Part shown: piece by piece, positions 1 to 45,689 of the stretch
Layout of the letters: the number at the start of each line of letters is the position of its first letter
Numbering within the stretch: position 1 is the stretch's first letter
Assembly: GCF_024679245.1 (NCBI RefSeq)
Contig: NC_090192.1
Span: 26,001 to 90,000, forward strand
Direction of reading: 5' to 3'
Source: Pseudorasbora parva
Taxonomy: Eukaryota; Chordata; Actinopteri; Cypriniformes; Gobionidae
Length of the DNA stretch: 64,000 nt
Made by a program: the position numbers and the translations under genes
The notes under the pieces: model-generated
The model's database searches: none
Told to the model about the DNA's origin: nothing
The model's input: only the letters and a program-made list of their open reading frames with translations

Positions 1-1260
1 CGGTGGAGAAACGGGATGGGGAGACGAATCGAACCCAGACAGGTTCGTTGGAAAATGTGAGACCCAGACAGGCCGCACATTTTCTGGTTCGTCCTCTTAA
101 AAAAGGATCTCAATTTTAGGAGACACATGGTCAAAAATTCCCCTTTATCTAACCACTAGGTGACTGCCTTAGACCAGGATTAAACTCCGTGATTCGATCC
201 TCACCACAGGCCAAAATACTTAACCATTGGGGGGTTTTGCGATGCTGGGTCAGGATTATCGAGCTTCGGCCTGATTCGCTGATCCAGAGCAAGTTCAGAC
301 CGGAAACTTCGCAATTCCTAAAAACCAGAAAGGGAAACAAAAATAATCATAAAATTATCAGTAAAGGTTAGCCATGACCCCACTAAAACTTACTCATCGA
401 ACTAACCCAACCGAACGAAACGGATAACAAAAACCACACCTACTTTTATAACCTTCCACCTAACTGAATAAGACAAAAAACCACAGAAGTTTCATAAATG
501 AACAAAAGGATATATATATATTTAAAAAATTATACGCCACCCACCTGACCCAAAAGCCCAAAAAAGGCACTGCTCCTAACGGGAGCCAATCACAGGCGAC
601 AACAGTATAGTCTGGCATGCGCAACCAGAGTCATCAGACTAAGACATACTGTCCCATGCACATGATCCGGTACAAATGGGCCCACTAATTAGATAGAAGA
701 TCCTCATCCCCTCCGGTTTCTCTCCTGCCCTCCGTGGTTGGTAGAGAAACGGGATGGGGAGACGAATCGAACCCAGACAGGTTCATTGGAAAATGTGAGA
801 CCCAGACAGGCCGCACATTTTCTGGTTCGTCCTCTTAAAAAAGGATCTCAATTTTAGGAGACACATGGTCAAAAATTCCCCTTTATCTAACCACTAGGTG
901 ACTCCCTTAGACCAGGATTAAACTCCGTGATTCGATCCTCACCACAGGCCAAAATACTTAAACCATTGGGGGGTTTTGCGATGCTGGGTCAGGATTATCG
1001 AGCTTCGGCCTGATTCGCTGATCCAGAGCAAGTTCAGACCGGAAACTTCGCAATTCCTAAAAACCAGAAAGGGAAACAAAAATAATCATAAAATTATCAG
1101 TAAAGGTTAGCCATGACCCCACTAAAACTTACTCATCGAACTAACCCAACCGAACGAAACGGATAACAAAAACCACACCTACTTTTATAGCCTTCCACCT
1201 AACTGAATAAGACAAAAACCACAGAAGTTTCATAAATTAACAAAAGGATATATATATATA

Positions 1261-1307
<47 letters not shown>

Positions 1308-1660
1308 ATACGCCACCCACCTGACCCAAAAGCCCCCAAAAAAGGCACTGCTCCTAACGGGAGCCAATCACAGGCGACAACAGTATAGTCTGGCATGCGC
1401 AACCAGAGTCATCAGACTAAGACATACTGTCCCATGCACATGATCCAATACAAATGGGCCCACAAATTAGATAGAAGATCCTCATCCCCTCCGGTTTTCT
1501 CTCCTGAACTTTCATAAATTAACAAAAGGATATAAAATAAATCAATACACCACCCACCTGACCCATAAGCTAAAAAAAGGCACTGCTCTTAACGGGAACC
1601 AATCACAGGCGACATGTGTAACCAGAGTCATCGGACTAGACATACTGTTCCATGCACATG
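1..1660 (+). repeat. Head monomers (a), (b) and partial (c) of unit 1
   Basis: Two head-to-tail monomers of about 740 bases (roughly 1-622 and 623-1399) and a shortened third (1400-1660). Each complete monomer holds the 78-nt structured motif, a TA-rich stretch, and the GCTCC/GGAGC hairpin followed by CCAATCACAGGCGAC. The joints differ from unit-to-unit joints: after GTATAGTCTGGCATGCG the next monomer begins at once, without the second hairpin, the GTTGTAATTTT tail or telomeric repeats. Equivalent blocks lie at 6798-8580 and 16519-18260. Confidence 0.8.
237..314 (+). ncRNA. Candidate structured RNA motif, copy 1 (type I)
   Basis: A 78-nt segment that can fold as a three-way junction. The closing stem TTGCGA (237-242) pairs with TCGCAA (309-314). 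A 9-bp arm at 245-253 pairs with 279-287, with an inner helix capped by a UUCG tetraloop (GC-TTCG-GC, 263-270). A short third stem AGTT (292-295) pairs with AACT (305-308). Other type I copies begin at 976, 7149, 7888, 16870 and 17606. Whether it is transcribed is unknown. It is not a tRNA or 5S RNA, and I see no hammerhead core. Confidence 0.5.
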
Positions 1661-1979
1661 ATCCCTCTCAAATTTTAGGAAATACATGATCAAAAAATCC
1701 CCGTTCATTATTAAACTACCCCTTAACCTACCCACCCCACTCCACTCCACCCCTTAACCTATCCACCCCCCCACAACCTACCCCTTAATCTAAAAACTAC
1801 CATCTTGCAAACCACACACTCTAAACACAAAACTACGGAAAACTTAGTTTACTGTTTCTTTAAGGGTACGATAAACGACATTCGTTGTCAAATTTCGATA
1901 AATGGCATTTGCCACCGTGATCCGAAAAATGACACTCATCGCCAACAATCCATGAGCCGACTTTTACCGTCAACCTTTC

Positions 1980-2680
1980 AGGAATCGTTTTTCGCTTAAA
2001 GACAATTCAGAGGTCGACCTTTACGATCGCCTTTTCATGAATTGTTCTTCAACCATCGACTTTCGTCGACAACAATTCATGGGTCAACTTTTACCGTCGA
2101 CTTTTCATGAATCGTTATTCACGAACACATGTTCATGCAATTCATGTATTGACTTTTACCGTCAACCTTTCATGAATGTCGTAGTCATTATTTGAACTAA
2201 AAAACCAAGACAGAGTGACTCAGCGGAACACCTTTTCTATCCACGGTGACACAAAATGCCTTCTGGGAAATAACTTATAAAAACTTATCATCCTGAAAGT
2301 ACACCTTCTAAAAATAAAAAATCAATCATCTTTTCTTTTAAAGAAGGGATAAACAGCGTTTACCGAAGAGATTTGTTCACCATTTAGGGCCTTTTTTAAT
2401 GATATGCGAAATCCACAAATACAGGAGTTGTTTTTTACCTTTAAACTTTCAAAAATCGTTTTTCGTTTATCAAAGATGATTCAGGGATTGACGCTTACCA
2501 TCAACCCTTCATGAATCATTCTTCGATCATCGACTTTCATCGACAAACAATTCATGAGTCAACTTTTACCGTCAACCAATCATAAATCATTATTCACGAA
2601 TAAACGTTTGTGAGTATTTCATGGATTGACTTTTACCGTCAACTTTCATGAATCTCGGGATTTAAACTTAAAAACCGCAG
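1980..2680 (+). repeat. Satellite A (TTTTACCGTCAAC / TCATGAATC motif)
   Basis: Degenerate short tandem repeats built around GACTTTTACCGTCAAC and TTTCATGAATCGT with spacing of roughly 50-80 bases. The same block lies at 8899-9599 (unit 2) and 18576-19257 (unit 4). Two sub-blocks are separated by a spacer containing CGGAACACCTTTTCTATCC, which itself occurs twice (about 2224 and 2694). No coding potential was recognised. Confidence 0.7.
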
Positions 2681-2814
2681 TACAGCGATTCAACGGAACA
2701 CCTTTTCTATCCGCGGTGACACAAGATGCCTTATGGGTAATAACCTATAAAACTTACCCTCTTGCAAACAACACGCTCTATACATGACACTGCGGAAAAC
2801 TTAACCGCCTTTTT

Positions 2815-3850
2815 TTAGGGTTCAGGCTCCCAACGGTTGTCCTTGGTAAGGATGATGTCGGTTTGGTTCTAGCTTGCGCCTTAGGGGGAAAGGCTGGTAG
2901 AAGCTTGATGGGCTCTTCGGGGCTCATTCGCCAGTCTGACCCTCGACCTGGCCCCTTAAAAATCCATTCATTTATTATGGTGAATGGGGAGGTCAGGGTT
3001 GCCCCATTCGGGGGGCTCCCTGGGCCGTTGAGCTCGGCGGCCGGGGGTGGTGGCGGTTGACTTCGCTATCTGCCCCAGGGCCGTGGTGTCTCTGTGGCTT
3101 TCGGGGGGTCCTTTGAAGGGTCTCCCGGCACTCTGGGGGTCTGGAGACCTGGGGAGGCTGAAAGTAAGTTTTGGCTATCCCTGGGTGGAAGGGCCTTCGG
3201 GGTCTTGGGGCCGAGAGGATTTGGAATCTCTCGACCCTGGGGACTCCCGGGTTCCTATCGGTTCACGAGGATGGGAATCTCGTGTCCGGTGGGGGCCTTG
3301 GGTTTCGGCTTGGGTGATCTTTAGGGGCTAAATCAGCAAGGGGGAGTTGGGCGGCGGTGATCCGTTCGCTGTCTGCCTTTTTTTCCCCCTGGGTCCCACG
3401 GGACCCAGCTGATTTGGGCAAGGGACCCCTTGGTGCCCTTCTGGAGGCCCTGCCTCTGGGGGGCACGGGGGGGTTCCTACTCCCCGGATTAGCCGGGGAA
3501 GGCCCCACCAAAATCAGCAGGGGCTAAGGGGGAAGGACGATCTGATCGTCGCGGACCCTGGATCCCTAAGTTCCCTAAGAACTTGGCTGATTTGGGCACA
3601 GGACCCGGGGGAGACCGGTTAGTCCATTCGGCTGTAACATGGTTGCGGCCGGTGGGCTCTCTCGGTGCCCTTGGATCCAGCTCTGGGAAATCGGAGAGTG
3701 TTCCCTGTGGGGCTCTTAACGAGCATTGCGGGACCTCTTCCGATGGATCGGAGCTAGCCCCAAGAAGAGACCTTTTAGTCACAGACTCTTCTCGGGTGAC
3801 CTGGGCAACCTAACGGTGATAACAAAGGGTCACTTGGGGGAGTGGTAAGT
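2815..3850. other. GC-rich, CpG-containing segment of unit 1
   Basis: About 1 kb of G/C-rich sequence in otherwise AT-rich units, with clustered CpG (for example near 3040, 3350, 3550 and 3640). It is repeated at 9734-10769 and 19412-20446. Short open frames occur on both strands, as expected of GC-rich DNA, and none resembles a known domain. By analogy with CpG-rich TERRA promoter regions of human subtelomeres it could drive subtelomeric transcription, but that is inference. A degenerate tandem origin is suggested by recurring CAGCTGATTTGGG / GGCTGATTTGGG and CTGGGTCC / GGACCC motifs. Confidence 0.5.
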
Positions 3851-4439
3851 ATCCAGCCTTCCCGGGGTAACACCCGGTTGGGTGGCCTAGGGCGATGGGC
3901 CTTAATTGGAGCCCAATTTTTTACGGTGACTATTGCCACTCACGCAACAGCACATTGTGCAACCAACATCCAACACACTGACATGTTTCTTCCCAGCTAC
4001 TTTTTGCTTGTCTTCATTGCTGGACTTTGAGTTGTTCAACTCAAAAAATACATTCTTACTTGACTCGTGGAGTCCACTTCCCGATACACATAGATTTCCT
4101 CTGACCCATACCCCTTCCTCCGACCCTGACCCCCCACCCCATCCCAACCCCAACCAACACACTAACCTTGGCCTACCAAAAAAAATACTACAAACAAACC
4201 ACTGACATCTACCTAAAAGATCAGGATTAGTTCACCATACATTAGAACCCAAAAAACAATTGTGGTTCTTTTTAGAAAAAACATAGCAATTGGGCTGGAG
4301 ACACACGTTTGGGACTGATCCCCCAGACGGGCCGCCTCAGAGGAGGGTGTCTAGTGTTTAAAGAGCCGAAACACCCGATGATACTGAGGTACGCTACTGA
4401 AGATGTGTCTCAAACATTTCCCTCAGACATCTCACTTGA

Positions 4440-5620
4440 GGGAGTAAGAATCTCAAAGCAATACACTATCATTACCCACACTCCCACACTAACTCTAGCC
4501 ATCACAAATCCACTCGCATCAACCCTACCAAACCCATTTTTTACACCAAAAAAACTTACCCACTAAGGCATCTTTTGACCAGAAAACGCTTTTCAAAAAA
4601 CCATAAAATATAGAACTACCCCCACTCCTACACTAACCCTACCCATCACAAAACCTATTGGCATTAACCCTATCGACTAAAACCCTAATGTGAAACTCCA
4701 CAAAACAAAAATAGATATTTTAACATAACCCTTATTCCAACCCTAACCCTACCCATCACAGACCTACTTGTATCAACCCCATCCACTAAAACCCTAATTT
4801 TGACAAAAGTAGATACTAATGTAACCCTTACTCCTACCCTAATCCTACCCATCACAAACCCACTCGCATTAACCCTAATTTCAAACTTCATTGGACAAAA
4901 AATAGAGGCTAACCTAACCCTTACTCCTACCCTAACCCTACCCATCACAGACCCACTCGCATCAACCCTATCGACAAAAACCTTAACTCCAAACTTCACT
5001 AGACAAAAAAATAGATACTAACGTAGTCCCTACTCCTACCCTAATCCTACCCATCACAAACCAGTTTGCATTAACCCTAATTTGAAAACCCATCAGACAA
5101 AAAAATAGATATTAACCTAGCCCTTACTCCTACCCTAATCCTACCCGTCACAAACCCACTGGCATCAACCTTATTGACAAAAACCTTAATAGACACTAAC
5201 GTAGCTCCTACTCCTACCCTAAACCTACCCATCACAAACCTACTCGCATCAACCCTAATTAGAAAATCCATTAGACAAAAAAATTAGATACTAACCTAGC
5301 CCTTGCTCCTACCCTAATCCTACCCAACACAAACCCACTGGCATCAACCCTATTGACAAAAACCTTAATTCAAAACTCCATAGACACTAACGTAGCTCCT
5401 ACTCCTACCCTAAACCTACCCATCACAAACCTACTCGCATCAACCCTAATTAGAAAATCCATTAGACAAAAAATTAGGTACTAACCTAGCCCTTACTCCT
5501 TCCCTAATCCTACCCGACACAAACCCACTCGCATCAACCCTATCGACCAAAACCCTAAATTCAAAATTCCATTAGACAAAAAAATAGATACCAATATAAG
5601 CCCTACTCTTACAATACCCA
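4440..5620 (+). repeat. Satellite B: G-poor, telomere-like satellite of unit 1
   Basis: Imperfect tandem repeats of about 90-130 bases built from CTCCTACCCTAATCCTACCC, ATCACAAACCCACTCGCATC and AACCCTATCGACAAAAACC. The plus strand is almost free of G runs. The minus strand carries repeated GGGTAGGATTAGGGTAGG-type runs, which resemble degenerate TTAGGG. Copies lie at 11359-12539, 14161-15341, 21036-22216 and (short) 25412-25760. Short frames encoding RVRVGVRV-like peptides on the minus strand only reflect the repeat. Confidence 0.85.
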
Positions 5621-6360
5621 TTGTAAAAAACCATATAGGCTATACTTGCGCGTCAAGTAACCAATTAACCAAAAAAATCCCAAAAGCAAACTCCTAATTC
5701 AACCCATACAACTAATATTATCTAGGACAGGGTGACTAACAACCCACACACAAACTCCACCCACAAACCCAATTCTTGACCAAGATTTTAACCCTTAAAG
5801 CCAGACAGGAAGTTGTCGTATTTCATTAACGAAAGATATTACCGTATCGGGACAAAGACCAAAAGTACCGTCCTAATCACCACTCCTGACCACCCCAAAC
5901 CCAATCAACTCGGACCTTTCCTTCAAAATATGCGTCCGTTTTTATAAGAGCACTTTTTCTATTAAAACGCCTATATCTCGGAAAAGAAAGCACGCACCAA
6001 GGCCAAACTCAACCTCATAACATCTCTCTGTAATACCTGTCACACCATAAAACCCTGAACTTCTGGGACCTTTCCTTACTAAATGCACCATTTCCTATCA
6101 AGCCACACATCGCGGCCTAAGGGGGCGCTAGAGTCTCACACGGGGGCACGTTCAATAGGCCCTATCCTCACCCTTCTTTGACACGAATATCAACACTATA
6201 GCCCAACTCAACACAGAGATATAGTCCATCTAAGTGGACACCTCGATAATCACCCTTTCAATCATTTAATCACCTTTTACGTAGACTTCAAATTCCCTGA
6301 CCTGTTACATAGACTTCAAATTCCCTGACCTTTTACCACATACCAAAATACTCCACCTAT
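5620..6360. other. Unit 1 stretch between satellite B and tail
   Basis: AT-rich sequence without obvious tandem structure or coding potential, repeated in units 2, 3, 4 and the 25.4-26.9 kb block. It includes a short direct duplication of TAGACTTCAAATTCCCTGACC near 6280-6330. Confidence 0.6.
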
Positions 6361-6367
6361 GGGAGGA

Positions 6368-6445
6368 TTGCAATGCTGGATCAGGATTATCGGGCTTCGG
6401 CTTGGTTCGCTGGTCCAGAGCAAGTTCAGATTGGAAACTTTGCAA
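6368..6445 (+). ncRNA. Candidate structured RNA motif, tail copy (type II)
   Basis: A diverged version of the 78-nt fold in the unit tail, of identical length. The closing stem is TTGCAA (6368-6373) with TTGCAA (6440-6445), so a G-C pair of type I has become A-T by changes on both sides. The 9-bp arm (6376-6384 with 6410-6418) also keeps pairing despite substitutions, and the GC-TTCG-GC loop is unchanged. Equivalent type II copies start at 13287, 16089, 22974 and 26518. The pattern argues for selection on RNA or single-strand structure in the past. Confidence 0.5.
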
Positions 6446-6654
6446 TTCCTAAAAACCAGGAAAGGAAACAAGAACAATCACTTCCCTCAGTAAAACTTAC
6501 CCATCAGACTAACCAAACCGAAAAGAACGGATTATAACAAACTTTACCCCAGTGTTCATAATTGATGGAAACATAAAGACAGAAGTTTCTTAAAACAACA
6601 AAACCAAAAGATAAAATAAGCTACTCACCTTGCCCATAAGCCAAAAAAGGCATT

Positions 6655-6784
6655 GCTCCTAGACGGGAGCCAATCACAGGCGACACAGTATAGTCTGACA
6701 GGCGTCGGCCAGTGCCCCTCCTCATTCTCCCTACTTCAAACCTTTCCAGACGAGTTCTGGCTTGGGGGGAGATGTTGTAATTTT
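6655..6784 (+). other. Two-hairpin tail ending on telomeric repeats (unit 1)
   Basis: The unit end contains hairpin 1 (GCTCC 6655-6659 with GGAGC 6666-6670), the conserved spacer GGCGTCGGCCAGTGC, hairpin 2 (CCAGA 6746-6750 with TCTGG 6756-6760), a GGGGGGAG run and GTTGTAATTTT, then CCCTAA. The same arrangement ends units 2 (13574-13703), 3 (16376-16505) and 4 (23251-23380) and the block at 26795-26924, where the hairpin 2 arm is TCAGA and still pairs through a G-U. A diverged relative is at 24569-24685. Confidence 0.7.
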
Positions 6785-6797
6785 CCCTAACCTAACC
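6785..6797 (+). repeat. Short telomeric joint between units 1 and 2
   Basis: CCCTAACCTAACC, about two telomeric repeats, lies exactly between the unit 1 tail and the unit 2 head (TTGGCCAGAGCC). The same joint recurs between units 3 and 4 at 16506-16518. Confidence 0.85.
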
Positions 6798-8174
6798 TTG
6801 GCCAGAGCCATCGGACTAGACATACTGTTCTATGCACAGGATCCTGAACAAATGGGCCCACAAATTAGATAAGATCCTCATCCCCTCCGGTTTCTCTCCT
6901 GCCCTCCGTGGTCGGTGGAGAAACGGGATGGGGAGACGAATCGAACCCAGACAGGTTCGTTGGAAAATGTGAGACCCAGACAGGCCGCACATTTTCTGGT
7001 TCGTCCTCTTAAAAAAGGATCTCAATTTTAGGAGACACATGGTCAAAAATTCCCCTTTATCTAACCACTAGGTGACTGCCTTAGACCAGGATTAAACTCC
7101 GTGATTCGATCCTCACCACAGGCCAAAATACTTAACCATTGGGGGGTTTTGCGATGCTGGGTCAGGATTATCGAGCTTCGGCCTGATTCGCTGATCCAGA
7201 GCAAGTTCAGACCGGAAACTTCGCAATTCCTAAAAACCAGAAAGGGAAACAAAAATAATCATAAAATTATCAGTAAAGGTTAGCCATGACCCCACTAAAA
7301 CTTACTCATCGAACTAACCCAACCGAACGAAACGGATAACAAAAACCACACCTACTTTTATAACCTTCCACCTAACTGAATAAGACAAAAAACCACAGAA
7401 GTTTCATAAATGAACAAAAGGATATATATATATTTAAAAAATTATACGCCACCCACCTGACCCAAAAGCCCAAAAAAGGCACTGCTCCTAACGGGAGCCA
7501 ATCACAGGCGACAACAGTATAGTCTGGCATGCGCAACCAGAGTCATCAGACTAAGACATACTGTCCCATGCACATGATCCGGTACAAATGGGCCCACTAA
7601 TTAGATAGAAGATCCTCATCCCCTCCGGTTTCTCTCCTGCCCTCCGTGGTTGGTAGAGAAACGGGATGGGGAGACGAATCGAACCCAGACAGGTTCATTG
7701 GAAAATGTGAGACCCAGACAGGCCGCACATTTTCTGGTTCGTCCTCTTAAAAAAGGATCTCAATTTTAGGAGACACATGGTCAAAAATTCCCCTTTATCT
7801 AACCACTAGGTGACTCCCTTAGACCAGGATTAAACTCCGTGATTCGATCCTCACCACAGGCCAAAATACTTAAACCATTGGGGGGTTTTGCGATGCTGGG
7901 TCAGGATTATCGAGCTTCGGCCTGATTCGCTGATCCAGAGCAAGTTCAGACCGGAAACTTCGCAATTCCTAAAAACCAGAAAGGGAAACAAAAATAATCA
8001 TAAAATTATCAGTAAAGGTTAGCCATGACCCCACTAAAACTTACTCATCGAACTAACCCAACCGAACGAAACGGATAACAAAAACCACACCTACTTTTAT
8101 AGCCTTCCACCTAACTGAATAAGACAAAAACCACAGAAGTTTCATAAATTAACAAAAGGATATATATTTATATA

Positions 8175-8226
<52 letters not shown>

Positions 8227-13703: not shown

Positions 13704-13779
13704 CCCTAACCTAACCCTAACCCTAACCCTAACCCTAACCCTAACCCTAACCCTAACCCTAACCCTAACCCTAACCCTT
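13704..13779 (+). repeat. Interstitial telomeric array, CCCTAA, ~75 bp
   Basis: Uninterrupted CCCTAA repeats after one shortened CCTAA repeat at the start. It separates the intact right end of unit 2 from the truncated left end of unit 3. Orientation matches a telomere to the left. Confidence 0.95.
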
Positions 13780-16505: not shown

Positions 16506-16518
16506 CCCTAACCTAACC

Positions 16519-19500
16519 TTGGCCAGAGCCATCGGACTAGACATACTGTTCTATGCACAGGATCCTGAACAAATGGGCCCACAAATTAGATAAGATCCTC
16601 ATCCCCTCCGGTTTCTCTCCTGCCCTCCGTGGTCGGTGGAGAAACGGGATGGGGAGACGAATCGAACCCAGACAGGTTCGTTGGAAAATGTGAGACCCAG
16701 ACAGGCCGCACATTTTCTGGTTCGTCCTCTTAAAAAAGGATCTCAATTTTAGGAGACACATGGTCAAAAATTCCCCTTTATCTAACCACTAGGTGACTGC
16801 CTTAGACCAGGATTAAACTCCGTGATTCGATCCTCACCACAGGCCAAAATACTTAACCATTGGGGGGTTTTGCGATGCTGGGTCAGGATTATCGAGCTTC
16901 GGCCTGATTCGCTGATCCAGAGCAAGTTCAGACCGGAAACTTCGCAATTCCTAAAAACCAGAAAGGGAAACAAAAATAATCATAAAATTATCAGTAAAGG
17001 TTAGCCATGACCCCACTAAAACTTACTCATCGAACTAACCCAACCGAACGAAACGGATAACAAAAACCACACCTACTTTTATAACCTTCCACCTAACTGA
17101 ATAAGACAAAAACCACAGAAGTTTCATAAATTAACAAAAGGATATATATATTAAAAAAATTATACGCCACCCACCTGACCCAAAAGCCCAAAAAAAGGCA
17201 CTGCTCCCAACGGGAGCCAATCACAGGCGACAACAGTATAGTCTGGCATGCGCAACCAGAGTCATCAGACTAAGACATACTGTCCCATGCACATGATCCA
17301 GTACAAATGGGCCCACAAATTAGATAGAAGATCCTCATCCCCTCCGGTTTCTCTCCTGCCCTCCGTGGTTGGTAGAGAAACGGGATGGGGAGACGAATCG
17401 AACCCAGACAGGTTCATTGGAAAATGTGAGACCCAGACAGGCCGCACATTTTCTGGTTCGTCCTCTTAAAAAAGGATCTCAATTTTAGGAGACACATGGT
17501 CAAAAATTCCCCTTTATCTAACCACTAGGTGACTCCCTTAGACCAGGATTAAACTCCGTGATTCGATCCTCACCACAGGCCAAAATACTTAACCATTGGG
17601 GGGTTTTGCGATGCTGGGTCAGGATTATCGAGCTTCGGCCTGATTCGCTGATCCAGAGCAAGTTCAGACCGGAAACTTCGCAATTCCTAAAAACCAGAAA
17701 GGGAAACAAAAATAATCATAAAATTATCAGTAAAGGTTAGCCATGACCCCACTAAAACTTACTCATCGAACTAACCCAACCGAACGAAACGGATAACAAA
17801 AACCACACCTACTTTTATAGCCTTACACCTAACTGAATAAGGCAAAAACCACAGAAGTTTCATAAATTAACAAAAGGATATATATATATATATTAAAAAA
17901 ATTATACGCCACCCACCTGACCCAAAAGCCCCCAAAAAAGGCACTGCTCCTAACGGGAGCCAATCACAGGCGACAACAGTATAGTCTGGCATGCGCAACC
18001 AGAGTCATCAGACTAAGACATACTGTCCCATGCACATGATCCAGTACAAATGGGCCCACAAATTAGATAGAAGATCCTCATCCCCTCCGGTTTTCTCTCC
18101 TGAACTTTCATAAATTAACAAAAGGATATAAAATAAATCAATACACCACCCACCTGACCCATAAGCTAAAAAAAGGCACTGCTCTTAACGGGAACCAATC
18201 ACAGGCGACATGTGTAACCAGAGTCATCGGACTAGACATACTGTTCCATGCACATGATCCCTCTCAAATTTTAGGAGATACATGATCAAAAAAATCCCCG
18301 TTCACTATTAAACTACCCCTTAACCTACCCACCCCACTCCACTCCACCCCTTAACCTATCCACCCCCCCACAACCTACCCCTTAATCTAAATCCTACCAT
18401 CTTGCAAACCACACACTCTAAACACAAAACTACGGAAAACTTAGTTTACTGTTTCTTTAAGGGTATGATAAACGACATTCGTTGTCAAATTTCGATAAAT
18501 GGCATTCGCCATCGTGATCCGAAAAATGACACTCATCGCCAACAATCCATGAGCCGACTTTTACCGTCAACCTTTCAGGAATCGTTTTTCGCTTAAAGAC
18601 AATTCAGAGGTCGACCTTTATGATCGCCTTTTCATGAATTGTTCTTCAACCATCGACTTTCGTCGACAACAATTCATGGGTCAACTTTTACCGTCGACTT
18701 TTCATGAATCGTTATTCACGAACACATGTTCATGCAATTCATGTATTGACTTTTACCGTCAACCTTTCATGAATGTCGTAGCCATTATTTGAACTAAAAA
18801 ACCAAGACAGAGTGACTCAGCGGAACACCTTTTCTATCCACGGTGACACATAATGCCTTCTGGGAAATAACTTATAAAAACTTATCATCCTGAAAGTACA
18901 CCTTCTAAAAATAAAAAATCAATCATCTTTTCTTTTAAAGAAGGGATAAACAGCGTTTACCGAAGAGATTTGTTCACCATTTAGAGCCTTTTTTAATGAT
19001 ATGCGAAATCCACAAATACAGGAGTTGTTTTTTACCTTTAAACTTTCAAAAATCGTTTTTCGTTTATCAAAGATGATTCAGGGATTGACGCTTACCATCA
19101 ACCCTTCATGAATCATTCTTCGATCATCGACTTTCATCGACAAACAATTCATGAGTCAACTTTTACCGTCAACCAATCATGAATCATTATTCACGAATAA
19201 ACGTTTGTGAGTATTTCATGGATTGACTTTTACCGTCAACTTTCATGAATCTCGTGATTTAAACCTAAAAACCACAATACAGCGACTCAACGGAACACCT
19301 TTTCTATCCGCGGTGACACAAGATGCCTTATGGGTAATAACCTATAAAACTTACCCTCTTGCAAACAACACGCTCTATACATGACACTGCGGAAAACTTA
19401 ACCGCTTTTTTTAGGGTTCAGGCTCCCAACGGTTGTCCTTGGTAAGGATGATGTCGGTTTGGTTCTAGCTTGCGCCTTAGGGGGAAAGGCTGGTAGAAGC

Positions 19501-22500
19501 TTGATGGGCTCTTCGGGGCTCATCCGCCAGTCTGACCCTCGACCTGGCCCCTTAAAAATCCATTCATTTATTATGGTGAATGGGGAGGTCAGGTTTGCCC
19601 CATTCGGGGGGCTCCCTGGGCCGTTGAGCTCGGCTGCCGGGGGTGGTGGCGATTGACTTCGCTATCTGCCCCAGGGCTGTGGTGTCTCTGTGGCTTTCGG
19701 GGGGTCCTTTGAAGGGTCTCCCGGCACTCTGGGGGTCTGGAGACCTGGGGAGGCTGAAAGTAAGTTTTGGCTATCCCTGGGTGGAAGGGCCTTCGGGGTC
19801 TTGGGGCCGAGAGGATTGGGAATCTCTCGACCCTGGGGACTCCCGGGTACCTATCGGTTCACGAGGATGGGAATCTCGTGTCCGGTGGGGGCCTTGGGTT
19901 TCGGCTTGGGTGATCTTTAGGGGCTAAATCAGCAAGGGGGAGTTGGGCGGCGGTGATCCGTTCGCTGTCTGCCTTTTTTCCCCCTGGGTCCCACGGGACC
20001 CAGCTGATTTGGGCAAGGGATCCCTTGGTGCCCTTCTGGAGGCCCTGCCTCTGGGGGACACGGGGGGGTTCCCACTCCCCGGATTAGCCGGGGAAGGCCC
20101 CACCAAAATCAGCAGGGGCTAAGGGGGAAGGACGATCTGATCGTCGCGGACCCTGGATCCCTAAGTTCCCTAAGAACTTGGCTGATTTGGGCACAGGACC
20201 CGGGGGAGACCGGTTAGTCCATTCGGCTGTAACATGGTTGCGGCCGGTGGGCTCTCTCAGGTGCCCTTGGATCCAGCTCTGGGAAATCGGAGAGTGTTCC
20301 CTGTGGGGCTCTTAACGAGCATTGCGGGACCTCTTCCGATGGATCGGAGTTAGCCCCAAGAAGAGACCTTTTAGTCACAGACTCTTCTCGGGTGACCTGG
20401 GTAACCTAACGGTGATAACAAAGGGTCACTTGGGGGAGTGGTAAGTATCCAGCCTTCCCGGGGTAACACCCGGTTGGGTGGCCTAGGGCGATGGGCCTTA
20501 ATTGGAGCCCAATTTTTTACGGTGACTATTGCCACTCACGCAACAGCACATTGTGCAACCAACATCCAACACACTGACATGTTTCTTCCCAGCTACTTTT
20601 TGCTTGTCTTCATTGCTGGACTTTGAGTTGTTCAACTCAAAAAAATACATTCTTACTTGACTCGTGGAGTCCACTTCCCGATACACATAGATTTCCTCGA
20701 ACCCATACCCCTTCCTCCGACCCTGACCCCCCACCCCATCCCAACCCCAACCAACACACTAACCTTGGCCTACCAAAAAAATACTACAAACAAACCACTG
20801 ACATCTACCTAAAAGATCAGGATTAGTTCACCATACATTAGAACCCAAAAAACAATTGTGGTTCTTTTTAGAAAAAACATAGCAATTGGGCTGGAGACAC
20901 ACGTTTGGGACTGATCCCCCAGACGGGCCGCCTCAGAGGAGGGTGTCTAGTGTTTAAAGAGCCGAAACACCCGATGATACTGAGGTACGCTACTGAAGAT
21001 GTGTCTCAAACATTTCCCTCAGACATCTCACTTGAGGGAGTAAGAATCTCAAAGCAATACACTATCATTACCCACACTCCCACACTAACTCTAGCCATCA
21101 CAAATCCACTCGCATCAACCCTACCAAACCCATTTTTTACACCAAAAAAACTTACCCACTAAGGCATCTTTTGACCAGAAAACGCTTTTCAAAAAACCAT
21201 AAAATATAGAACTACCCCCACTCCTACACTAACCCTACCCATCACAAAACCTATTGGCATTAACCCTATCGACTAAAACCCTAATGTGAAACTCCACAAA
21301 ACAAAAATAGATATTTTAACGTAACCCTTATTCCAACCCTAACCCTACCCATCACAGACCCACTTGTATCAACCCCATCCACTAAAACCCCAATTTTGAC
21401 AAAAATAGATACTAATGTAACCCTTACTCCTACCCTAATCCTACCCATCAAAAACCCACTCGCATTAACCCTAATTTCAAACTTCATTGGACAAAAAATA
21501 GAGGCTAACCTAACCCTTACTCCTACCCTAACCCTACCCATCACAGACCCACTCGCATCAACCCTATCGACAAAAACCTTAACTCCAAACTTCACTAGAC
21601 AAAAAAATAGATACTAACGTAGTCCCTACTCCTACCCTAATCCTACCCATCACAAACCAGTTTGCATTAACCCTAATTTGAAAATCCTTTAGACAAAAAA
21701 ATAGATATTAACCTAGCCCTTACTCCTACCCTAATCCTACCCGTCACAAACCCACTGGCATCAACCTTATTGACAAAAACCTTAATAGACACTAACGTAG
21801 CTCCTACTCCTACCCTATACCTACCCATCACAAACCTACTCGCATCAACCCTAATTAGAAAATCCATTAGACAAAAAAATTAGATACTAACCTAGCCCTT
21901 GCTCCTACCCTAATCCTACCCAACACAAACCCACTGGCATCAACCCTATTGACAAAAACCTTAATTCAAAACTCCATAGACACTAACGTAGATCCTACTC
22001 CTACCCTAAACCTACCCATCACAAACCTACTCGCATCAACCCTAATTAGAAAATCCATTAGACAAAAAATTAGGTACTAACCTAGCCCTTACTCCTTCCC
22101 TAATCCTACCCGACACAAACCCACTCGCATCAACCCTATCGACCAAAACCCTAAATTCAAAATTCCATTAGACAAAAAAATAGATACCAATATAAGCCCT
22201 ACTCTTACAATACCCATTGTAAAAAACCATATAGGCTATACTTGCGCGTCAAGTAACCAATTAACCAAAAAAATCCCAAAAGCAAACTCCTAATTCAACC
22301 TATACAACTAATATTATCTAGGACAGGGTGACTAACAACCCACACACAAACTCCACCCACAAACCCAATTCTTGACCAAGATTTTAACCCTTAAAGCCAG
22401 ACAGGAAGTTGTCGTATTTCATTAACGAAAGATATTACCGTATCGGGACAAAGACCAAAAGTACCGTCCTAATCACCACTCCTGACCACCCCAAACCCAA

Positions 22501-23380
22501 TCAACTCGGACCTTTCCTTCAAAGTATGCGTCCGTTTTTATAAAAGCACTTTTTCTATTAAAACGCCTATATCTCGGAAAAGAAAGCACGCACCAAGGCC
22601 AAACTCAACCTCATAACATCTCTCTGCAATACCTGTCACACCATAAAACCCTGAACTTCTGGGACCTTTCCTTACTAAATGCACCATTTCCTATCAAGCC
22701 ACACATCGCGGCCTAAGGGGGCGCTAGAGTCTCACACGGGGGCACGTTCAATAGGCCCTATCCTCACCCTTCTTTGACGTGAATATCAACACTATAGCCC
22801 AACTCAACACAGAGATATAGTCCATCTAAGTTGACACCTCGATAATCACCCTTTCAATCATTTAATCACCTTTTACGTAGACTTCAAATCCCCTGACCTG
22901 TTACATAGACTTCAAATTCCCTGACCTTTTACCACATACCGAAATACTCCACCTATGGGAGGATTGCAATGCTGGATCAGGATTATCGGGCTTCGGCTTG
23001 GTTCGCTGGTCCAGAGCAAGTTCAGATTGGAAACTTTGCAATTCCTAAAAACCAGGAAAGGAAACAAGAACAATCACTTTCATCAGTAAAACTTACCCAT
23101 CAGACTAACCAAACCGAAAAGAACGGATTATAACAAACTTTACCCCAGTGTTCATAATTGATGGAAACATAAAGACAGAAGTTTCTTAAAACAACAAAAC
23201 CAAAAGATAAAATAAGCTACTCACCTTGCCCATAAGCCAAAAAAGGCATTGCTCCTAGACGGGAGCCAATCACAGGCGACACAGTATAGTCTGACAGGCG
23301 TCGGCCAGTGCCCCTCCTCATTCTCCCTACTTCAAACCTTTCCAGACGAGTTCTGGCTTGGGGGGAGATGTTGTAATTTT
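16519..23380 (+). repeat. Subtelomeric macrosatellite unit 4 (complete)
   Basis: Complete unit, about 6.86 kb, with the same order of parts as unit 2. It lacks the long poly(A) tract seen in the second head monomer of units 1 and 2 (short A run at 17895) and carries scattered substitutions, such as an extra base near 20260. It ends at TTGTAATTTT, followed by the longest telomeric tract in the window. No coding function is supported. Confidence 0.9.
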
Positions 23381-23875
23381 CCCTAACCTAACCCTAACCC
23401 TAACCCTAACCCTAACCCTAACCCTAACCCTAACCCTAACCCTAACCCTAACCCTAACCTAACCCTAACTAACCCTAACTAACCCTAACCCTAACCCTAA
23501 CCCTAACCTAACCCTAACCCTAACCCTAACCCTAACCCTAACCCTAACCCTAACCCTAACCCTAACCCTAACCCTAACCTAACCTAACCCTAACCCTAAC
23601 CCTAACCCTAACCCTAACCCTAACCCCCTAACCCTAACCCTAACCCTAACTAACCCTAACCCTAACCCTAACCCTAACCCTAACCCTAACCCTAACCCCC
23701 TAACCCTAACCCTAACTAACCCTAACCCTAACCCTAACCCTAACCCTAACCCTAACCCTAACCCTAACCTAACCCTAACCCTAACCCTAACCCTAACCCT
23801 AACCCTAACCCTAACCCCTAACCCTAACCCTAACCCTAACCCTAACCCTAACCCTAACCCTAACCCTAACCCTAA
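23381..23875 (+). repeat. Interstitial telomeric array, CCCTAA, ~495 bp
   Basis: Longest telomeric tract in the window. It is mostly perfect CCCTAA with variants: CCTAA (several), CTAACTAA (near 23465-23480, 23648 and 23715) and C-expanded CCCCCTAA (near 23625 and 23695). Some variant groups recur at a spacing of about 70 bp (23625-23650 and 23695-23718), which suggests block duplication inside the array. Confidence 0.97.
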
Positions 23876-24685
23876 TCAGTGGCTTATACCTAAACCTACC
23901 CATCACTGACCTGATGAATCAGTGGCTTATACCTAAACCTACCCGTCACAGGGGTAATGAGCAGTGACTTGGTTTTTGAGGATCTATCCCCATACCGATC
24001 CCTGCCTAAACCTACCCGTCACAGACCTGTGGTATTAGTGGGGGCTGATACCTAACCCTACCCATCACAGACCTGGGGTATGAGTTTAATAATCTACCTA
24101 ACCCTACCCATCACAGACCGGGGGCATGGTTTGAACCCTAGCCGGTACAGCCCGGATGGATCGAATGGGGCTAGAGCATAACCCTACTGGTCACAGCCCT
24201 AAGGATGGGTTGATTTTGGAGGAGGTCTATCCCCATATCAATCCGTGTTTCACCGCTCTATGGAGTATTGTCAGGTTTATATTTCTCAGGAATCTTGATA
24301 CCCTTGCCGGGTAGCCCTACTCATTGCAGCCCCGAGGGGGGGATGTTTGGGTTATCGTAAAGCTTACCCAGTAGCTTAACTGTTTAGTTCGGAGCGGTCT
24401 ATGAAGCCGTGTCGTGGGGTTTTGTGTTTGGGGTGGGTGCGTGCGGTGGGTGGGGATTCGTTGGGGGGTTAGGTTTAGAGTTTGGGGAGATGCGTGGCCT
24501 AGCCCGGTCTAGCGTTTCCCCCGGGGGGGAGGTTTTTTTGTTCGTGGGTACCCAATGCCAAGTCGGCAGTCCCAAGAAAACAGGGACGACAGCAGAGTCT
24601 AACAAGCGTCGGCCAGTGCACTTCCTCAGTCTCCCTTCCGGCTTGGCCGAAGGCTAGGTTCGGGAGGGAGCTGTTGTAATTTCAT
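23876..24685 (+). repeat. Older diverged subtelomeric block
   Basis: It starts with degenerate repeats of CCTAAACCTACCCRTCACAG separated by TCAGTGGCTTATA (23876-24120), continues through GC-rich sequence (24140-24560) and ends in a two-hairpin tail like that of the 6.9-kb units. The motif CTACCCATCACAG links it to satellite B. It appears to be a distant relative of the main unit in the same order: satellite, GC-rich part, tail. No gene was recognised. Confidence 0.65.
24569..24685 (+). other. Diverged two-hairpin tail before telomeric repeats
   Basis: Hairpin 1 is GTCCC (24569-24573) with GGGAC (24583-24587). The spacer keeps AGCGTCGGCCAGTGC. Hairpin 2 is CCTT-C-CGGC (24634-24642) with GCCGAAGG (24646-24653), with one bulged C. 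GGGAGGGAGC and TGTTGTAATTT follow, then CCTAA repeats. Stem sequences differ from those of the main units but pairing is kept, while single-stranded GTCGGCCAGTGC and TGTTGTAATTT are conserved. Confidence 0.6.
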
Positions 24686-24723
24686 AAACCTAACCCTAAC
24701 CCTAACCCTAACCCTAACCCTAA
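24686..24723 (+). repeat. Short telomeric array after the diverged block
   Basis: Five to six CCCTAA repeats following the diverged tail, passing into the ~58-bp tandem repeat. Confidence 0.85.
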
Positions 24724-24724
24724 G

Positions 24725-24925
24725 CCTAAACCTACCCAGATACCCCTGACTAATAAGTATATAGACATACCCACATCACACCTAAACCTACCCAGATACC
24801 CCTGGCTAATATATAAATATATAGACATACCCACCCCACACCTAAACCTACCCAGATACCCCTGGCTAATAAATATATAAACATACCCACATCACCCCTA
24901 AACCTACCCAGACACCCCTGGCAAT
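24725..24925 (+). repeat. ~58-60-bp tandem repeat, four copies
   Basis: Four copies of a unit that starts CCTAAACCTACCCAGATACC and continues with CCTGGCTAATAAATATATA and ACATACCCACATCAC. Copies start at about 24725, 24781, 24841 and 24898, the last incomplete. The first bases resemble degenerate CCCTAA. Confidence 0.8.
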
Positions 24926-25393
24926 GTCACCAAGGGGTCTACAGCCCTCTCATCATGCTAACCCCCACCACAAAACCCTACCTAAAACCTACCCCTCTTA
25001 CCTGGGGTCCAGATGGGTCAACCCTCGACTCCGCACCCCGCGTGGATCCAGCCCGGCCTGGCGTACCCCTCGTGGACGTAGCCCTGGATTCCTGCAAAAA
25101 AACAGAGAAAAAAATGATGAGTGGCTATATAAAATATAGTGTGGGTTAAATAACATAAATGGTTAATATAGTAAATAAATAAATAAACTGATGTGATGAT
25201 ACATACTTATCTGGCTTATACAAAGATAAAATAAAAAAGAATGAAATTTATTATACATATAATGGCACTAGCAGGACATGGTAACGTTGTTGGCTATCTT
25301 TGGACCTGGGCCGCCTTTAGTGGTCAGTAGAAGGCTGGACCGTGCACAACCATTTCAGGGACCTTAGGGTCCCTGATCTTGGATTTTTCATTC
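24926..25393. other. Block ending in an 8-bp perfect hairpin before telomeric repeats
   Basis: It begins with C-rich subtelomere-like sequence (24926-25100) and continues with an AT-rich stretch (25100-25300). A hairpin follows, CAGGGACC (25356-25363) with GGTCCCTG (25368-25375) and a 4-base loop, then ATCTTGGATTTTTCATT and CCCTAA repeats. No protein or RNA family was recognised. Confidence 0.5.
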
Positions 25394-25412
25394 CCCTAAC
25401 CCTAACCCTAAT
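25394..25412 (+). repeat. Short telomeric cap on truncated block
   Basis: About three CCCTAA repeats. They merge with the unit's own CCCTAATTTGAAAA, so the joint has microhomology. Confidence 0.8.
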
Positions 25413-26924
25413 TTGAAAATCCATCGGACAAAAAAAATAGATATTAACCTAGCCCTTACTCCTACCCTAATCCTACCCGTCACAAACCCACTGGCATCAA
25501 CCCTATTGACAAAAACCTTAATAGACACTAACGTAGCTCCTACTCCTACCCTAAACCTACCCATCACAAACTTACTCGCATCAACCCTAATTAGAAAATC
25601 CATTAGACAAAAAATTAAATACTAACCTAGCCCTTACTCCTTCCCTAATCCTACCCGACACAAACCCACTCGCATCAACCCTATCGACCAAAACCCTAAA
25701 TTCAAAATTCCATTAGACAAAAAAATAGATACCAATATAAGCCCTACTCTTACAATACCCATTGTAAAAAACCATATAGGCTATACTTGCGCGTCAAGTA
25801 ACCAATTAACCCAAAAAATCCCAAAAGCAAACTCCTAATTCAACCCATACAACTAATATTATCTAGGACAGGGTGACTAACAACCCACACACAAACTCCA
25901 CCCACATACCCAATTCCTGACCAAGATTTTAACCCTTAAAGCCAGACAGGAAGTTGTCGTATTTCATTAACGAAAGATATTACCGTATCGGGACAAAGAC
26001 CAAAAGTACCGTCATAATCACCACTCCTGACCACCCCAAACCCAATCAACTCGGACCTTTCCTTCAAACTATGCGTCCGTTTTTATAAAAGCACTTTTTC
26101 TATTAAAACGCCTATATCTCGGAAAAGAAAGCACGCACCAAGGCCAAACTCAACCTCATAACATCTCTCTGTAATACCTGTCACACCATAAAACCCTGAA
26201 CTTCTGGGACCTTTCCTTACTAAATGCACCATTTCCTATCAAGCCACACATCGCGGCCTAAGGGGGCGCTAGAGTCTCACACGGGGGCACGTTCAATAGG
26301 CCCTATCCTCACCCTTCTTTGACGCGAATATCAACACTATAGCCCAACTCAACACAGAGATATAGTCCATCTAAGTTGACACCTCGATAATCACCCTTTC
26401 AATCATTTAATCACCTTTTACGTAGACTTCAAATTCCCTGACCTGTTACATAGACTTCAAATTCCCTGACCTTTACCACATACCAAAATAATCCACCTAT
26501 GGGAGGATTGCAATGCTGGATCAGGATTATCGGGCTTCGGCTTGGTTCGCTGGTCCAGAGCAAGTTCAGATTGGAAACTTTGCAATTCCTAAAAACCAGG
26601 AAAGGAAACAAGAACAATCACTTTCATCAGTAAAACTTACCCATCAGACTAACCAAACCGAAAAGAACGGATTATAACAAACTTTACCCCAGTGTTCATA
26701 ATTGATGGAAACATAAAGACAGAAGTTTCTTAAAACAACAAAACCAAAAGATAAAATAAGCTACTCACCTTGCCCATAAGCCAAAAAAGGCATTGCTCCT
26801 AGACGGGAGCCAATCACAGGCGACACAGTATAGTCTGACATGCGTCGGCCAGTGCCCCTCCTCACTCTCCCTACTTCAAACCTTTTCAGACGAGTTCTGG
26901 CTTGGGGGGAGATGTTGTAATTTT
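25412..26924 (+). repeat. 5'-truncated subtelomeric block (oldest related copy)
   Basis: It matches the end of satellite B and the whole tail of the 6.9-kb unit (compare 14790 onward), with more differences than units 1-4 have among themselves. It carries the type II structured motif (26518-26595) and the two-hairpin tail. One arm of hairpin 2 has changed from C to T and remains pairable. Confidence 0.85.
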
Positions 26925-26973
26925 CCCTAACCTAACCCTAACCTAACCCTAACCCTAACCCCTAACCCCTAAC
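26925..26973 (+). repeat. Innermost telomeric array
   Basis: CCCTAA-type repeats with CCTAA and CCCCTAA variants, about 49 bp. They mark the inner border of the subtelomeric domain. The next base starts an RTE-like LINE fragment. Confidence 0.9.
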
Positions 26974-28310
26974 CCATGTTGACAGGTGACAGGAGGGTGA
27001 GGGAAAGATGGAAGGAGTACTTTGAGGAACTGATGAATGAGAAAAATGACAGAGATGAGTTGTAAAGGCAAATATTGTTGACCAGGAAATACAAAGTATT
27101 AGCAAAGGTGAAGTTAGGAGAGCTTTGAAAAGGATAAAGAGAGAAAGGCTAAGGGGAGAAGTGGACATTTGTGAGCAGCAGTATGGTTTTATGCCAAGAA
27201 AGAGCACTACAGATGCATTATTTGCTTTGAGAAAGTTAATGGAGAAGTACAGAGAGGGTCATAAAGAGCTCCATTGTGTCTTTGTAGATTTAGAGAAAGC
27301 ATATGACAGAGTGCCAAGAGAGGAGCTGTTTTAATTGTATGAGGTCTGGAGTGGCGGAGAAGTATGTTAGAGTGGTACAGGATATGTATGAGAGCAGTAT
27401 GAAAGTGGTAAGATGTGCCATAGGTGAGACAGAGGACATCCCTGTAAAGGTGGGACTGCATCAAGGATCGGCTCTGAGCCCCTTCTTGTTTGCGGTGGTG
27501 ATGGACAGGCTGACAGATGAGGTCAGATAGGAATCTCCATGGACTATGATGTTTGCGGATGACATTGTGATCTGTAGTGAGAGCAGGGAGCAGGTGGAGG
27601 AAAGTCTAGAGAGGTGGAGGTTTGCTCTGGAGAGAAGAGGAATGAAGGTTATTCACAGCAAGACAGAATACATGTGTGTGAATGAGAGAGAAACAAGTGG
27701 AACAGTGAGGTTTCAGGGAAAAGAGGTAACGAAGGTGCATTTTAAGTACTTAGGGTCAACAGTCCAGAGCAATGGGGAGCGTGGAAAAGAGGTGAAGTGT
27801 GCAGGCAGGTTGGAATGGGTGGAGAAAAGTGTTAGGTCTGTTGTGTGATAAAAGAGTACCAGCAAGAATGAAAGGTGTACTGATACTGAAAGGTGTAGTG
27901 AGACCAGCGATGTTGTATGGTTTGGAGACCGTTGCACTGAGGAAAAGCTAGAGGTAGCAGAGCTGAACATGCGGAGGTTCTCTTTGGGAGTGATGAGAAT
28001 GGATAGGATCAGGAATGAGTACATCAGAGGGACAGCACATGCGAGATGTTTTGGAGACAACGTTAGAGAGGCCAGGCTGAGATGGTTTGGACATGTTGAT
28101 AGGAGGGAGAGTGAATATATTGGTAAAAGGATGCTGAGGTTAGAGCTGACAGGTAGGAGGTCGAGAAGAAGACCAAAGAGGAGTTTTATGGATACAGTGA
28201 AGGAGGACATGAAGGTAGTCAGTCTGAGAGAAGAGGATAGGACTAGATGGAGGTAGGTGAGTCGCTGTGGCGACCCCTGAAGGGAACAGCTGAAAGAAGA
28301 GCATATCCTC
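26974..28310 (+). pseudogene. RTE-like non-LTR retrotransposon, 5'-truncated and broken
   Basis: Remnant of a LINE reverse transcriptase. Recognisable pieces, in order, are RERWKEYFEELM, YGFMPRKSTTDALFALRKL, FVDLEKAYDRVPREEL, VGLHQGSALSPFLFAVVMD, the catalytic FADD box in MMFADDIVICSE, FKYLGSTVQSNGE and a C-terminal RWFGHVDRRESEYIG. Frames shift near 27330 and between 27780 and 27970, and there is a TAG at 27528. The endonuclease domain is missing. The right end has the GTGGCGACCCCTGAAGGGA-type tail common in fish RTE elements. Clade assignment rests on motif memory. The left end touches telomeric repeats. Confidence 0.85.
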
Positions 28311-37745: not shown

Positions 37746-37800
37746 TTGTTTGTTACCAACACCCTGATGAAGGCCAATGGGTCAATACGAAAATGGGTTT

Positions 37801-45631: not shown

Positions 45632-45689
45632 TGCCAAACTACCAATATGAGCACAACTAGACTGCTACTAAACTAACACAACTAGTTGG

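What the first reader, a model, noticed from the sequence alone, without database searches (positions are those of the whole stretch)
1..26973. Subtelomere built of blocks that each end on the right in CCCTAA: possible telomere-attaching element
Seen: the tails at 6784, 13703, 16505, 23380, 24685 and 26924 all stop at nearly the same base and are followed by CCCTAA-type repeats. A different block at 25393 also ends in CCCTAA. Left ends vary. Known: telomere-associated retroelements such as HeT-A/TART in flies and terminon-type Penelope elements in rotifers attach by their 3' end to chromosome ends, are often 5'-truncated, and are re-capped. Inference: an RNA ending in CCCUAA could pair with the TTAGGG 3' overhang and be copied onto the end, giving exactly this polarity. 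No reverse transcriptase is encoded, so the unit would be non-autonomous. Recombination or break-induced replication between subtelomeres could also explain it.
Basis: partly seen in the sequence, partly recalled or inferred. Interest (0 to 1): 0.9.

Follow-up and report, generated by a model that had tools for sequence, protein, structure and literature searches.

The report
Penelope retroelements at fish chromosome ends
Many chromosome ends of this fish carry pieces of a jumping gene that encodes a telomerase-like copying enzyme and itself ends in the chromosome-tip sequence, which suggests that it multiplies by attaching to chromosome tips.

Summary
Its blocks belong to Penelope-like retroelement (PLE) families, several of them left-truncated 3' ends. 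Left of the window, a copy with the same tail carries an esterase-like ORF1 and a 742-aa ORF2 (reverse transcriptase plus GIY-YIG endonuclease; best structural matches are telomerase RTs). In the fetched DNA, 74 of 74 copies of five tails are followed within 10 bases by CCTAA, going on as telomere tract (33), as a seam into another unit (39) or otherwise (2). T1 left ends scatter: 10 positions in 11. Of 126 exact T1 tail sites in the genome 100 were listed; 96 lie within 100 kb of a contig end and 95 of these point as predicted. RT copies of the lineage near ends: 19 of 19 point as predicted. Best reading: an element whose RNA ends in the telomere complement and is copied onto chromosome ends, like rotifer terminons, but with the endonuclease kept, in a vertebrate. 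Some copies clearly multiplied as DNA. Attachment by reverse transcription is inferred, not shown.

The parts
1..6784 (+). Unit A: T1-tailed unit (non-autonomous derivative of the T1 PLE); its first 115 bp lie left of the window
6785..6797 (+). 13-bp seam CCCTAACCTAACC between units A and B (read here as the element's own 3' end)
6798..13703 (+). Unit B: T1 unit used as reference U (6906 bp), ends in tail GTTGTAATTTT
13704..13778 (+). Interstitial telomere tract, 75 bp
13777..16505 (+). Unit C: left-truncated T1 copy (starts at unit position 4177), ends in tail
16506..16518 (+). 13-bp seam CCCTAACCTAACC between C and D
16519..23380 (+). Unit D: T1 unit, 100% identical to C over 2742 bp
23381..23875 (+). 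Interstitial telomere tract, 495 bp
23876..24688 (+). Block E: other family; parts of its first 261 bp are 77-82% similar to the 3' region of a C10-type PLE; ends in a T4-type tail related to T1
24689..24723 (+). Interstitial telomere tract
24724..25393 (+). Block F: 3' UTR and tail of a C61-type RT-encoding PLE (97.5% over 670 bp), left-truncated
25394..25411 (+). Short telomere-type joint between F and G (its last bases also belong to G)
25404..26924 (+). Unit G: left-truncated T1 copy, about 97.5% identical to the others
26925..26975 (+). Innermost interstitial telomere tract of the series; other DNA begins after it

Best explanation
The blocks are copies, several of them left-truncated, of telomere-attaching Penelope-like retroelements. 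Shown by sequence: the lineage has two genes (an esterase-like ORF1; an ORF2 with RT and GIY-YIG endonuclease); the tails examined end in telomere-complementary CCTAA(CC); copies lie mainly at chromosome ends with the 3' end towards the centromere on both arms; left ends are cut at scattered places and carry telomere repeats; copies with open ORFs exist. Inferred: the RNA's CCUAACC end pairs with the G-rich 3' overhang, ORF2 protein copies the RNA from that primer, copying often stops early, and telomerase re-caps the new end. The 6.9-kb window unit lacks the genes but keeps 437 bp of the 5' end and about 4.3 kb of the 3' part of the autonomous T1 element, so it is probably mobilised in trans. 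Tandem arrays and identical neighbours then arise by DNA-level duplication or by attachment to the 5' end of an existing copy.
For: Tails: 74 of 74 run into CCTAA within 10 bases. Left ends: 10 distinct positions in 11, with telomere-matching start of 4.6 bases on average against 2.06 for nearby positions (3 of 20000 random draws reach it). Autonomous T1 copy at C21:13276-23255, ORF1 470 aa and ORF2 742 aa. GIY-YIG above Pfam cut-off in ORF2; key residues kept, by eye, in six telomere-type ORF2s. Model of ORF2 (pLDDT 72): Foldseek ranks 1-6 are telomerase RTs, at low TM-scores of 0.32-0.37. Polarity: 95 of 96 listed T1 tail sites within 100 kb of an end, on 17 contig ends; 19 of 19 RT copies of at least 45% identity within 150 kb of an end. 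Block F equals the 3' UTR of a C61-type PLE. A hand-placed closing stem pairs 8 of 8 in five related tails, with compensatory changes. Of 7 telomere arrays whose inner edge was seen, 6 adjoin a left-truncated element.
Against: No transcript or insertion event was observed. Telomere-associated PLEs in the passages read are endonuclease-deficient; this one is not. No hammerhead ribozyme was found. Fold energies of the tails beat shuffles clearly for only two of 11 (T7 z -3.1, T4E z -2.3; T1 z +0.8). A=B, C=D and repeated block-plus-tract units on C12 and C16 show DNA-level copying. Of the 99 listed T1 tail sites on contigs of known length, three lie 0.4-1.3 Mb from an end and one near an end has the wrong polarity. 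Seventeen matches of at least 45% identity lie in the interior; 13 of these are under 1900 bp, three form a mid-C2 array beside a run of N, one has 14 stops. Some ends showed nothing of this kind in the stretch fetched: first 10 kb of C3 and C8, last 4 kb of C2 and C6.
Confidence: 0.72

Rival explanations
1. Site-specific insertion into telomere repeats: the GIY-YIG endonuclease cuts within TTAGGG tracts (or at an existing copy's 5' end) and the element inserts there by target-primed reverse transcription, as TRAS/SART of silkworm are said to do (recalled), rather than attaching to an open chromosome end.
For: GIY-YIG looks intact; truncated copies have telomere repeats on both sides; seams join a tail to another unit's 5' end. 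It explains the same polarity.
Against: It does not by itself explain why 6 of 7 telomere arrays with a visible inner edge are seated on a left-truncated element. Target-site duplications inside repeats were not tested.
Confidence: 0.18
2. DNA-only spread: a subtelomeric cassette bounded by telomere-like sequence is copied between ends by break-induced replication, as yeast Y' elements, worm TALT and mouse mTALT; the retroelement genes are passengers.
For: Identical neighbouring units and repeated block-plus-tract units. mTALT is a telomere-flanked head-to-tail subtelomeric unit (PMC7889907, passages). MoTeR arrays also expand by break-induced replication (PMC7367193, passages).
Against: Five tail types with different bodies share the same end rule and several a related hairpin; two kinds of window block trace to different RT-encoding families with open ORFs; units of different families begin alike after the seam (by eye). 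DNA copying does not predict these.
Confidence: 0.1

Closest known systems
Terminons / Athena (telomere-associated PLEs of bdelloid rotifers; PMC6431247 and PMC3846280, passages seen)
   Same: PLE reverse transcriptase; 3' end carries reverse-complement telomere repeats after a terminal fold; copies 5'-truncated by telomere repeats; head-to-tail arrays; GDSL-type esterase among the accessory genes
   Different: Those are described as endonuclease-deficient, up to 40 kb, with a hammerhead fold at the 3' end. Here the GIY-YIG domain looks intact, elements seen are about 6.7-10 kb, no hammerhead was found, and the host is a fish with TTAGGG telomeres
Canonical endonuclease-bearing PLEs (Penelope/Poseidon type; PMC11167929, passages seen)
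   Same: RT plus GIY-YIG in one ORF, tandem arrangement with repeated ends
   Different: The Anolis element is described as nicking AT-rich DNA in its own repeat or elsewhere; here copies sit mainly at chromosome ends and end in CCTAA. A separate 34-35%-identity family of the same genome is mostly interstitial
MoTeR and FoTeR telomeric retrotransposons of fungi (PMC7367193 passages; PMC12857005 listing only)
   Same: Retroelements in telomere arrays with short interstitial telomere tracts, 5' end towards the tip, truncated copies
   Different: FoTeRs are listed as non-LTR retrotransposons, and MoTeRs are recalled as such; ORF2 here is RT plus GIY-YIG
Mouse mTALT, worm TALT, yeast Y' (PMC7889907, passages seen; Y' detail recalled)
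   Same: Subtelomeric units between telomere repeats in uniform orientation, head-to-tail duplication
   Different: Described as spreading by recombination; no set of different bodies with a common 3' end is described in the passages seen

Membership tests
Penelope-like elements | RT and GIY-YIG endonuclease in one ORF | tested here: met
   GIY-YIG 24.1 bits against cut-off 22.6. Pfam RVT_1 not detected in T1 ORF2 itself; 24.6 bits in a 66%-identical relative (below the cut-off 29.6) and 31.7 in a 48%-identical one. YxDD and GIY-YIG residues kept
Penelope-like elements | RT related to telomerase RT | tested here: met
   Foldseek ranks 1-6 are TERT chains, E 1.1e-10 to 8.7e-9, query TM 0.32-0.37; model pLDDT 72; retron RTs follow from rank 7
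Penelope-like elements | Tandem copies with repeated ends (pLTR) | tested here: met
   6.7-6.9-kb tandem spacing; tail region is a diverged copy of the 5' sub-repeat
Penelope-like elements | Hammerhead ribozyme motif (in many, not all) | tested here: not met
   No Rfam hammerhead match at E up to 1 or 5 in the loci given, which include seams
Terminons / Athena | 3' end bears telomere-complement repeats and faces inward at chromosome ends | tested here: met
   74 of 74 tails; polarity 95 of 96
Terminons / Athena | Copies 5'-truncated by telomere repeats | tested here: met
   11 T1 left ends
Terminons / Athena | Endonuclease-deficient RT | tested here: not met
   GIY-YIG present with its key residues
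Terminons / Athena | 3'-terminal hammerhead fold | tested here: not met
   No Rfam match; another hairpin stands there
HeT-A/TART/TAHRE | LINE-type elements replacing telomerase repeats (recalled, and PMC5537684 abstract start) | tested here: not met
   ORF2 is RT plus GIY-YIG; long CCCTAA arrays cap ends, e.g. C5, C9, C11
Y'/TALT cassettes | Spread by recombination, no RT needed | tested here: inconclusive
   DNA-level duplications exist but do not account for the shared end rule

The most novel reading that the evidence does not exclude
A whole lineage of endonuclease-bearing Penelope-like elements in ray-finned fishes has become telomere-specific: its RNAs carry a telomere-complement 3' code behind a conserved hairpin, they prime on the telomere overhang, and they rebuild chromosome ends beside telomerase, with the GIY-YIG domain used on telomere or array DNA.
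Probability: 0.4. Interest if true: 0.93.

Novelty: new variant of a known kind. Interest (0 to 1): 0.86.

Why it matters
Telomere-attaching retroelements are known from flies, rotifers, silkworm and fungi (partly recalled). Here a vertebrate with TTAGGG telomeres carries, on at least 17 contig ends, elements whose RT resembles telomerase and whose tails finish in the telomere complement. That gives a vertebrate setting in which to ask how PLEs and telomerase are related, how a 3' RNA code could target chromosome ends, and what an endonuclease is for in an element that could use an open end. It also offers an explanation of how these subtelomeres grow. In the rows listed by ten literature searches of the open PMC library I saw no title or abstract start that reports this in a vertebrate; subscription papers were not searchable and the two main primary papers on telomeric PLEs were not held.

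Tried and rejected
First working model: pure break-induced replication seeded at the 13-bp CCCTAACCTAACC, as in Y'/TALT. Set back to a rival once an RT-encoding copy with the same tail appeared, several different bodies proved to share the end rule and block F matched another PLE.

Hammerhead or other known RNA in tails or seams: no credible Rfam match. Tail fold energies: weak evidence. MAFFT misaligned the 5' side of the tails, so pairing was counted on hand-placed stems of five sequences, a small and chosen set. The tail types used were defined, so 31 of 32 there is partly circular; the patterns also come from tails already seen, but they stop before the telomere-like bases. The tail at C20:1036 resembles T4 but was not in the pattern list used there. 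A viral-contig scan for the tail found nothing. A whole-genome count of T1 tails with and without CCCTAACC could not be got. E's autonomous partner was not found: its tail has no match in the C10 or C17 pieces fetched.
Full report
What the window is. The window is G000:C21:26001-90000, strand +, of a 1.23-Gb genome in 79 contigs; C21 is 42,207,876 bp long. CCCTAA on the + strand means that the tip of the chromosome lies to the left.

The observation. Two joints (6785, 16506) hold just 13 bp, CCCTAACCTAACC, followed by the first bases of another unit. The five T1 tails of the window continue with these same 13 bp, including the irregular 5-base repeat, so I take them as part of the element's own 3' end. 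A and B are identical apart from two gaps over 6804 bp, C and D are identical over 2742 bp, AB and CD differ by about 1.1%, and G, the innermost copy, by about 2.5%.

Beyond the window. I fetched C21:1-26100, 20 kb of C1 and the first 10 kb of C2-C16, later C16 to 21 kb, 5 kb near the right end of C1, the last 4 kb of C2, C6, C10 and C15, and the first 8 kb of C17 (all N), C18 and C20. In the DNA held, 32 internal telomere tracts of at least 17 bp were found, none inverted; 6 tracts at a contig start or after a gap were set aside. On the left side of 31 of 32 stands one of seven tail types (T1-T7), the exception being C1:1395. The right sides are diverse. Searching tails by their own sequence in the DNA held: T1 20 of 20, T2 34 of 34, T3 9 of 9, T4 7 of 7 and T6 4 of 4 run into CCTAA within 10 bases (0-2 bases for T1, T2 and T6). 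The script classed 33 as telomere tract and 41 as short; reading the 41, 39 are seams into another unit and 2 (C1:1862, L033:2383) are short stretches of another kind. Units of different families begin alike after the seam (AGCCCGNGCC or GCCAGAGCCATCGGAC, by eye). Stretches without any of this: first 10 kb of C3 and C8 and last 4 kb of C2 and C6. On the right arms, C15 holds an inverted T1 unit and C10 a T2 tail, both mirrored as predicted.

Left ends. Eleven T1 left ends that follow telomere tracts fall at 10 different unit positions (4177 to 5433; 4755 twice); a twelfth, on C18, was seen later and is not in the count. The place of some is unsure by a repeat, since this part of the unit is itself made of 95/190-bp repeats (G was put at 5373 and 5194). 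At the 10 distinct positions the unit begins with 4.6 telomere-matching bases on average, against 2.06 for all positions 4100-5700; 3 of 20000 random draws reach this. That fits telomere addition, or recombination, at such sites. All 11 cuts lie in one 1.3-kb part of the 6.9-kb unit, so they are not spread evenly. Of seven telomere arrays whose inner edge I saw (left ends of C6, C9, C11, C13, C18; right ends of C1, C10), six sit on a left-truncated element, C1 right being the exception (C13 follows a run of N; C10 right was recognised by eye as block-F sequence).

The autonomous partner. C21:13276-23255, whose right end lies 2.7 kb left of the window start, is a 9980-bp element bounded by the T1 seam on the left and a T1 tail plus 136 bp of telomere repeats on the right. 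It shares 437 bp at the 5' end (91%) and about 4.3 kb at the 3' end (93%) with the window unit, and it encodes ORF1 (470 aa) and ORF2 (742 aa, ending 8.5 kb left of the window). ORF1 matches GDSL-type hydrolases weakly (E 1e-4, below Pfam's cut-off) but keeps the GDSN, N and IHW blocks, as do ORF1s of the C16, C22 and C17 elements; in C61 my patterns for the N and H blocks found nothing, though VHW is there by eye. ORF2 carries GIY-YIG, YxDD, and residues invariant among 12 aligned proteins. Its model (mean pLDDT 72) matches telomerase RT first, at low TM-scores. Its nearest relatives (57-66%, plus a 100% one) form a clade with it at 100/100 support; telomeric copies C10 and C17 fall inside that clade, C22, C61 and C66 on another branch (84/48 for the three).

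Other blocks of the window. Block F is 97.5% identical over 670 bp to the stretch directly after ORF2 of a tandem C61-type element, including its tail; in that array the seam reads CATTCCCCTAACC and then the next unit, while in the window CATTCCCCTAACCCTAA goes on as telomere repeats. C61 is unplaced, but matches of the same score group lie near the ends of C13, C22 and C24. Block E is 77-82% similar, in parts of its first 261 bp, to the 3' region of a C10-type element; the source of its tail was not found. A T6-tailed block on C16 is 82% identical to the 3' UTR of a C22-type element.

Genome-wide position and polarity. A protein search with ORF2 gave 66 matches, 60 of 285 candidates scored. 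Sixteen lie on unplaced contigs and were left out of the tally. Of the other 50, those of at least 45% identity and within 150 kb of a contig end number 19, and 19 of 19 point as predicted; 17 more of at least 45% lie further in. Among long matches (1900 bp or more) of at least 45%, 17 are near ends and 4 are not: three form an array in mid-C2, whose last tail is followed after about 330 bp by a run of 200 N (gap or withheld, not known), and one has 14 stops. The 34-35% family of the same genome has 1 match near an end and 10 elsewhere (C19's length is not known and was counted as elsewhere). The T1 tail 19-mer occurs 126 times (71 forward, 55 reverse; reversed control 0); of the 100 places listed, 99 have a known contig length, 96 lie within 100 kb of an end, on 17 ends, and 95 of these 96 point as predicted; the 26 unlisted places were not seen. 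A BLAST with 145 bp of the tail scored 40 of 266 candidates; the 40 are identical to the query and, by inspection, lie near ends with the predicted polarity.

The 3' fold. T1, three T4 variants and T5 keep a closing stem of eight pairs, 8 of 8 in each; the outer three pairs read C-G A-U U-A, C-G A-U G-C and G-C C-G G-C. T2 and T2b, and T6 and its C22 relative, have hairpins of different sequence at the same place (by eye). Energies alone are not persuasive. No hammerhead was found.

How it most likely works. Shown: gene content, end rule, polarity, truncation. Inferred: RNA ending in CCUAACC pairs with the telomeric overhang and is copied by the telomerase-like RT; the new end is capped by telomerase. 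Passages on rotifer terminons describe the same design (PMC6431247), and passages on endonuclease-deficient PLEs describe priming from exposed ends followed by telomere addition (PMC3846280). Here the endonuclease is kept, so cutting inside telomere repeats or array seams remains a serious rival. DNA-level copying is certain for some pairs.

What it is not. It does not meet two defining features of terminons (endonuclease loss, hammerhead), so I do not file it as one; it works like one. It is a PLE by domain content.

Noticed in passing
45689-45805: 5S rRNA match (Rfam RF00001, 51.9 bits), the only match at gathering threshold in the window
   Followed up: no
48833-50344: Open single-exon SLC2A11-like transporter gene, used to place the source among cyprinid-like fishes
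   Followed up: partly
44528-45415: Open frame that looks like a Tc1-type transposase (recognised by eye, not searched)
   Followed up: no
26976-28300: LINE-like reverse transcriptase fragments directly inside the last telomere tract (recognised by eye); a similar stretch lies at C1:2879-3908
   Followed up: no
37797-39236: 28-bp satellite, about 49 copies, TACTTCACCTAGTGTGCACTACCTAGTG
   Followed up: no
60079-64000: About 1180-bp tandem repeat, 95-97% identical, running to the window's end
   Followed up: no
C2:34607094-34624500 (L052): Three C22-type ORF2 copies in mid-chromosome, the last followed by tail, seam and then 200 N; may mark a scaffolding join or an old fusion
   Followed up: partly
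C4:63-5109, C7:273-6999, C9:5973-9337, C21:510-2194: T2-tailed mini-units of about 841 bp in tandem at chromosome ends, seam CCCCTAACTCAGCCCGTGCC
   Followed up: partly
C16:1-9293: 967-bp tandem satellite at the chromosome end, seen as repeated open frames
   Followed up: no
C12, C13, C14, C17 left ends: 5000 N within the first 10 kb of C12, C13 and C14 and 8000 of 8000 in C17; gaps or withheld
   Followed up: no
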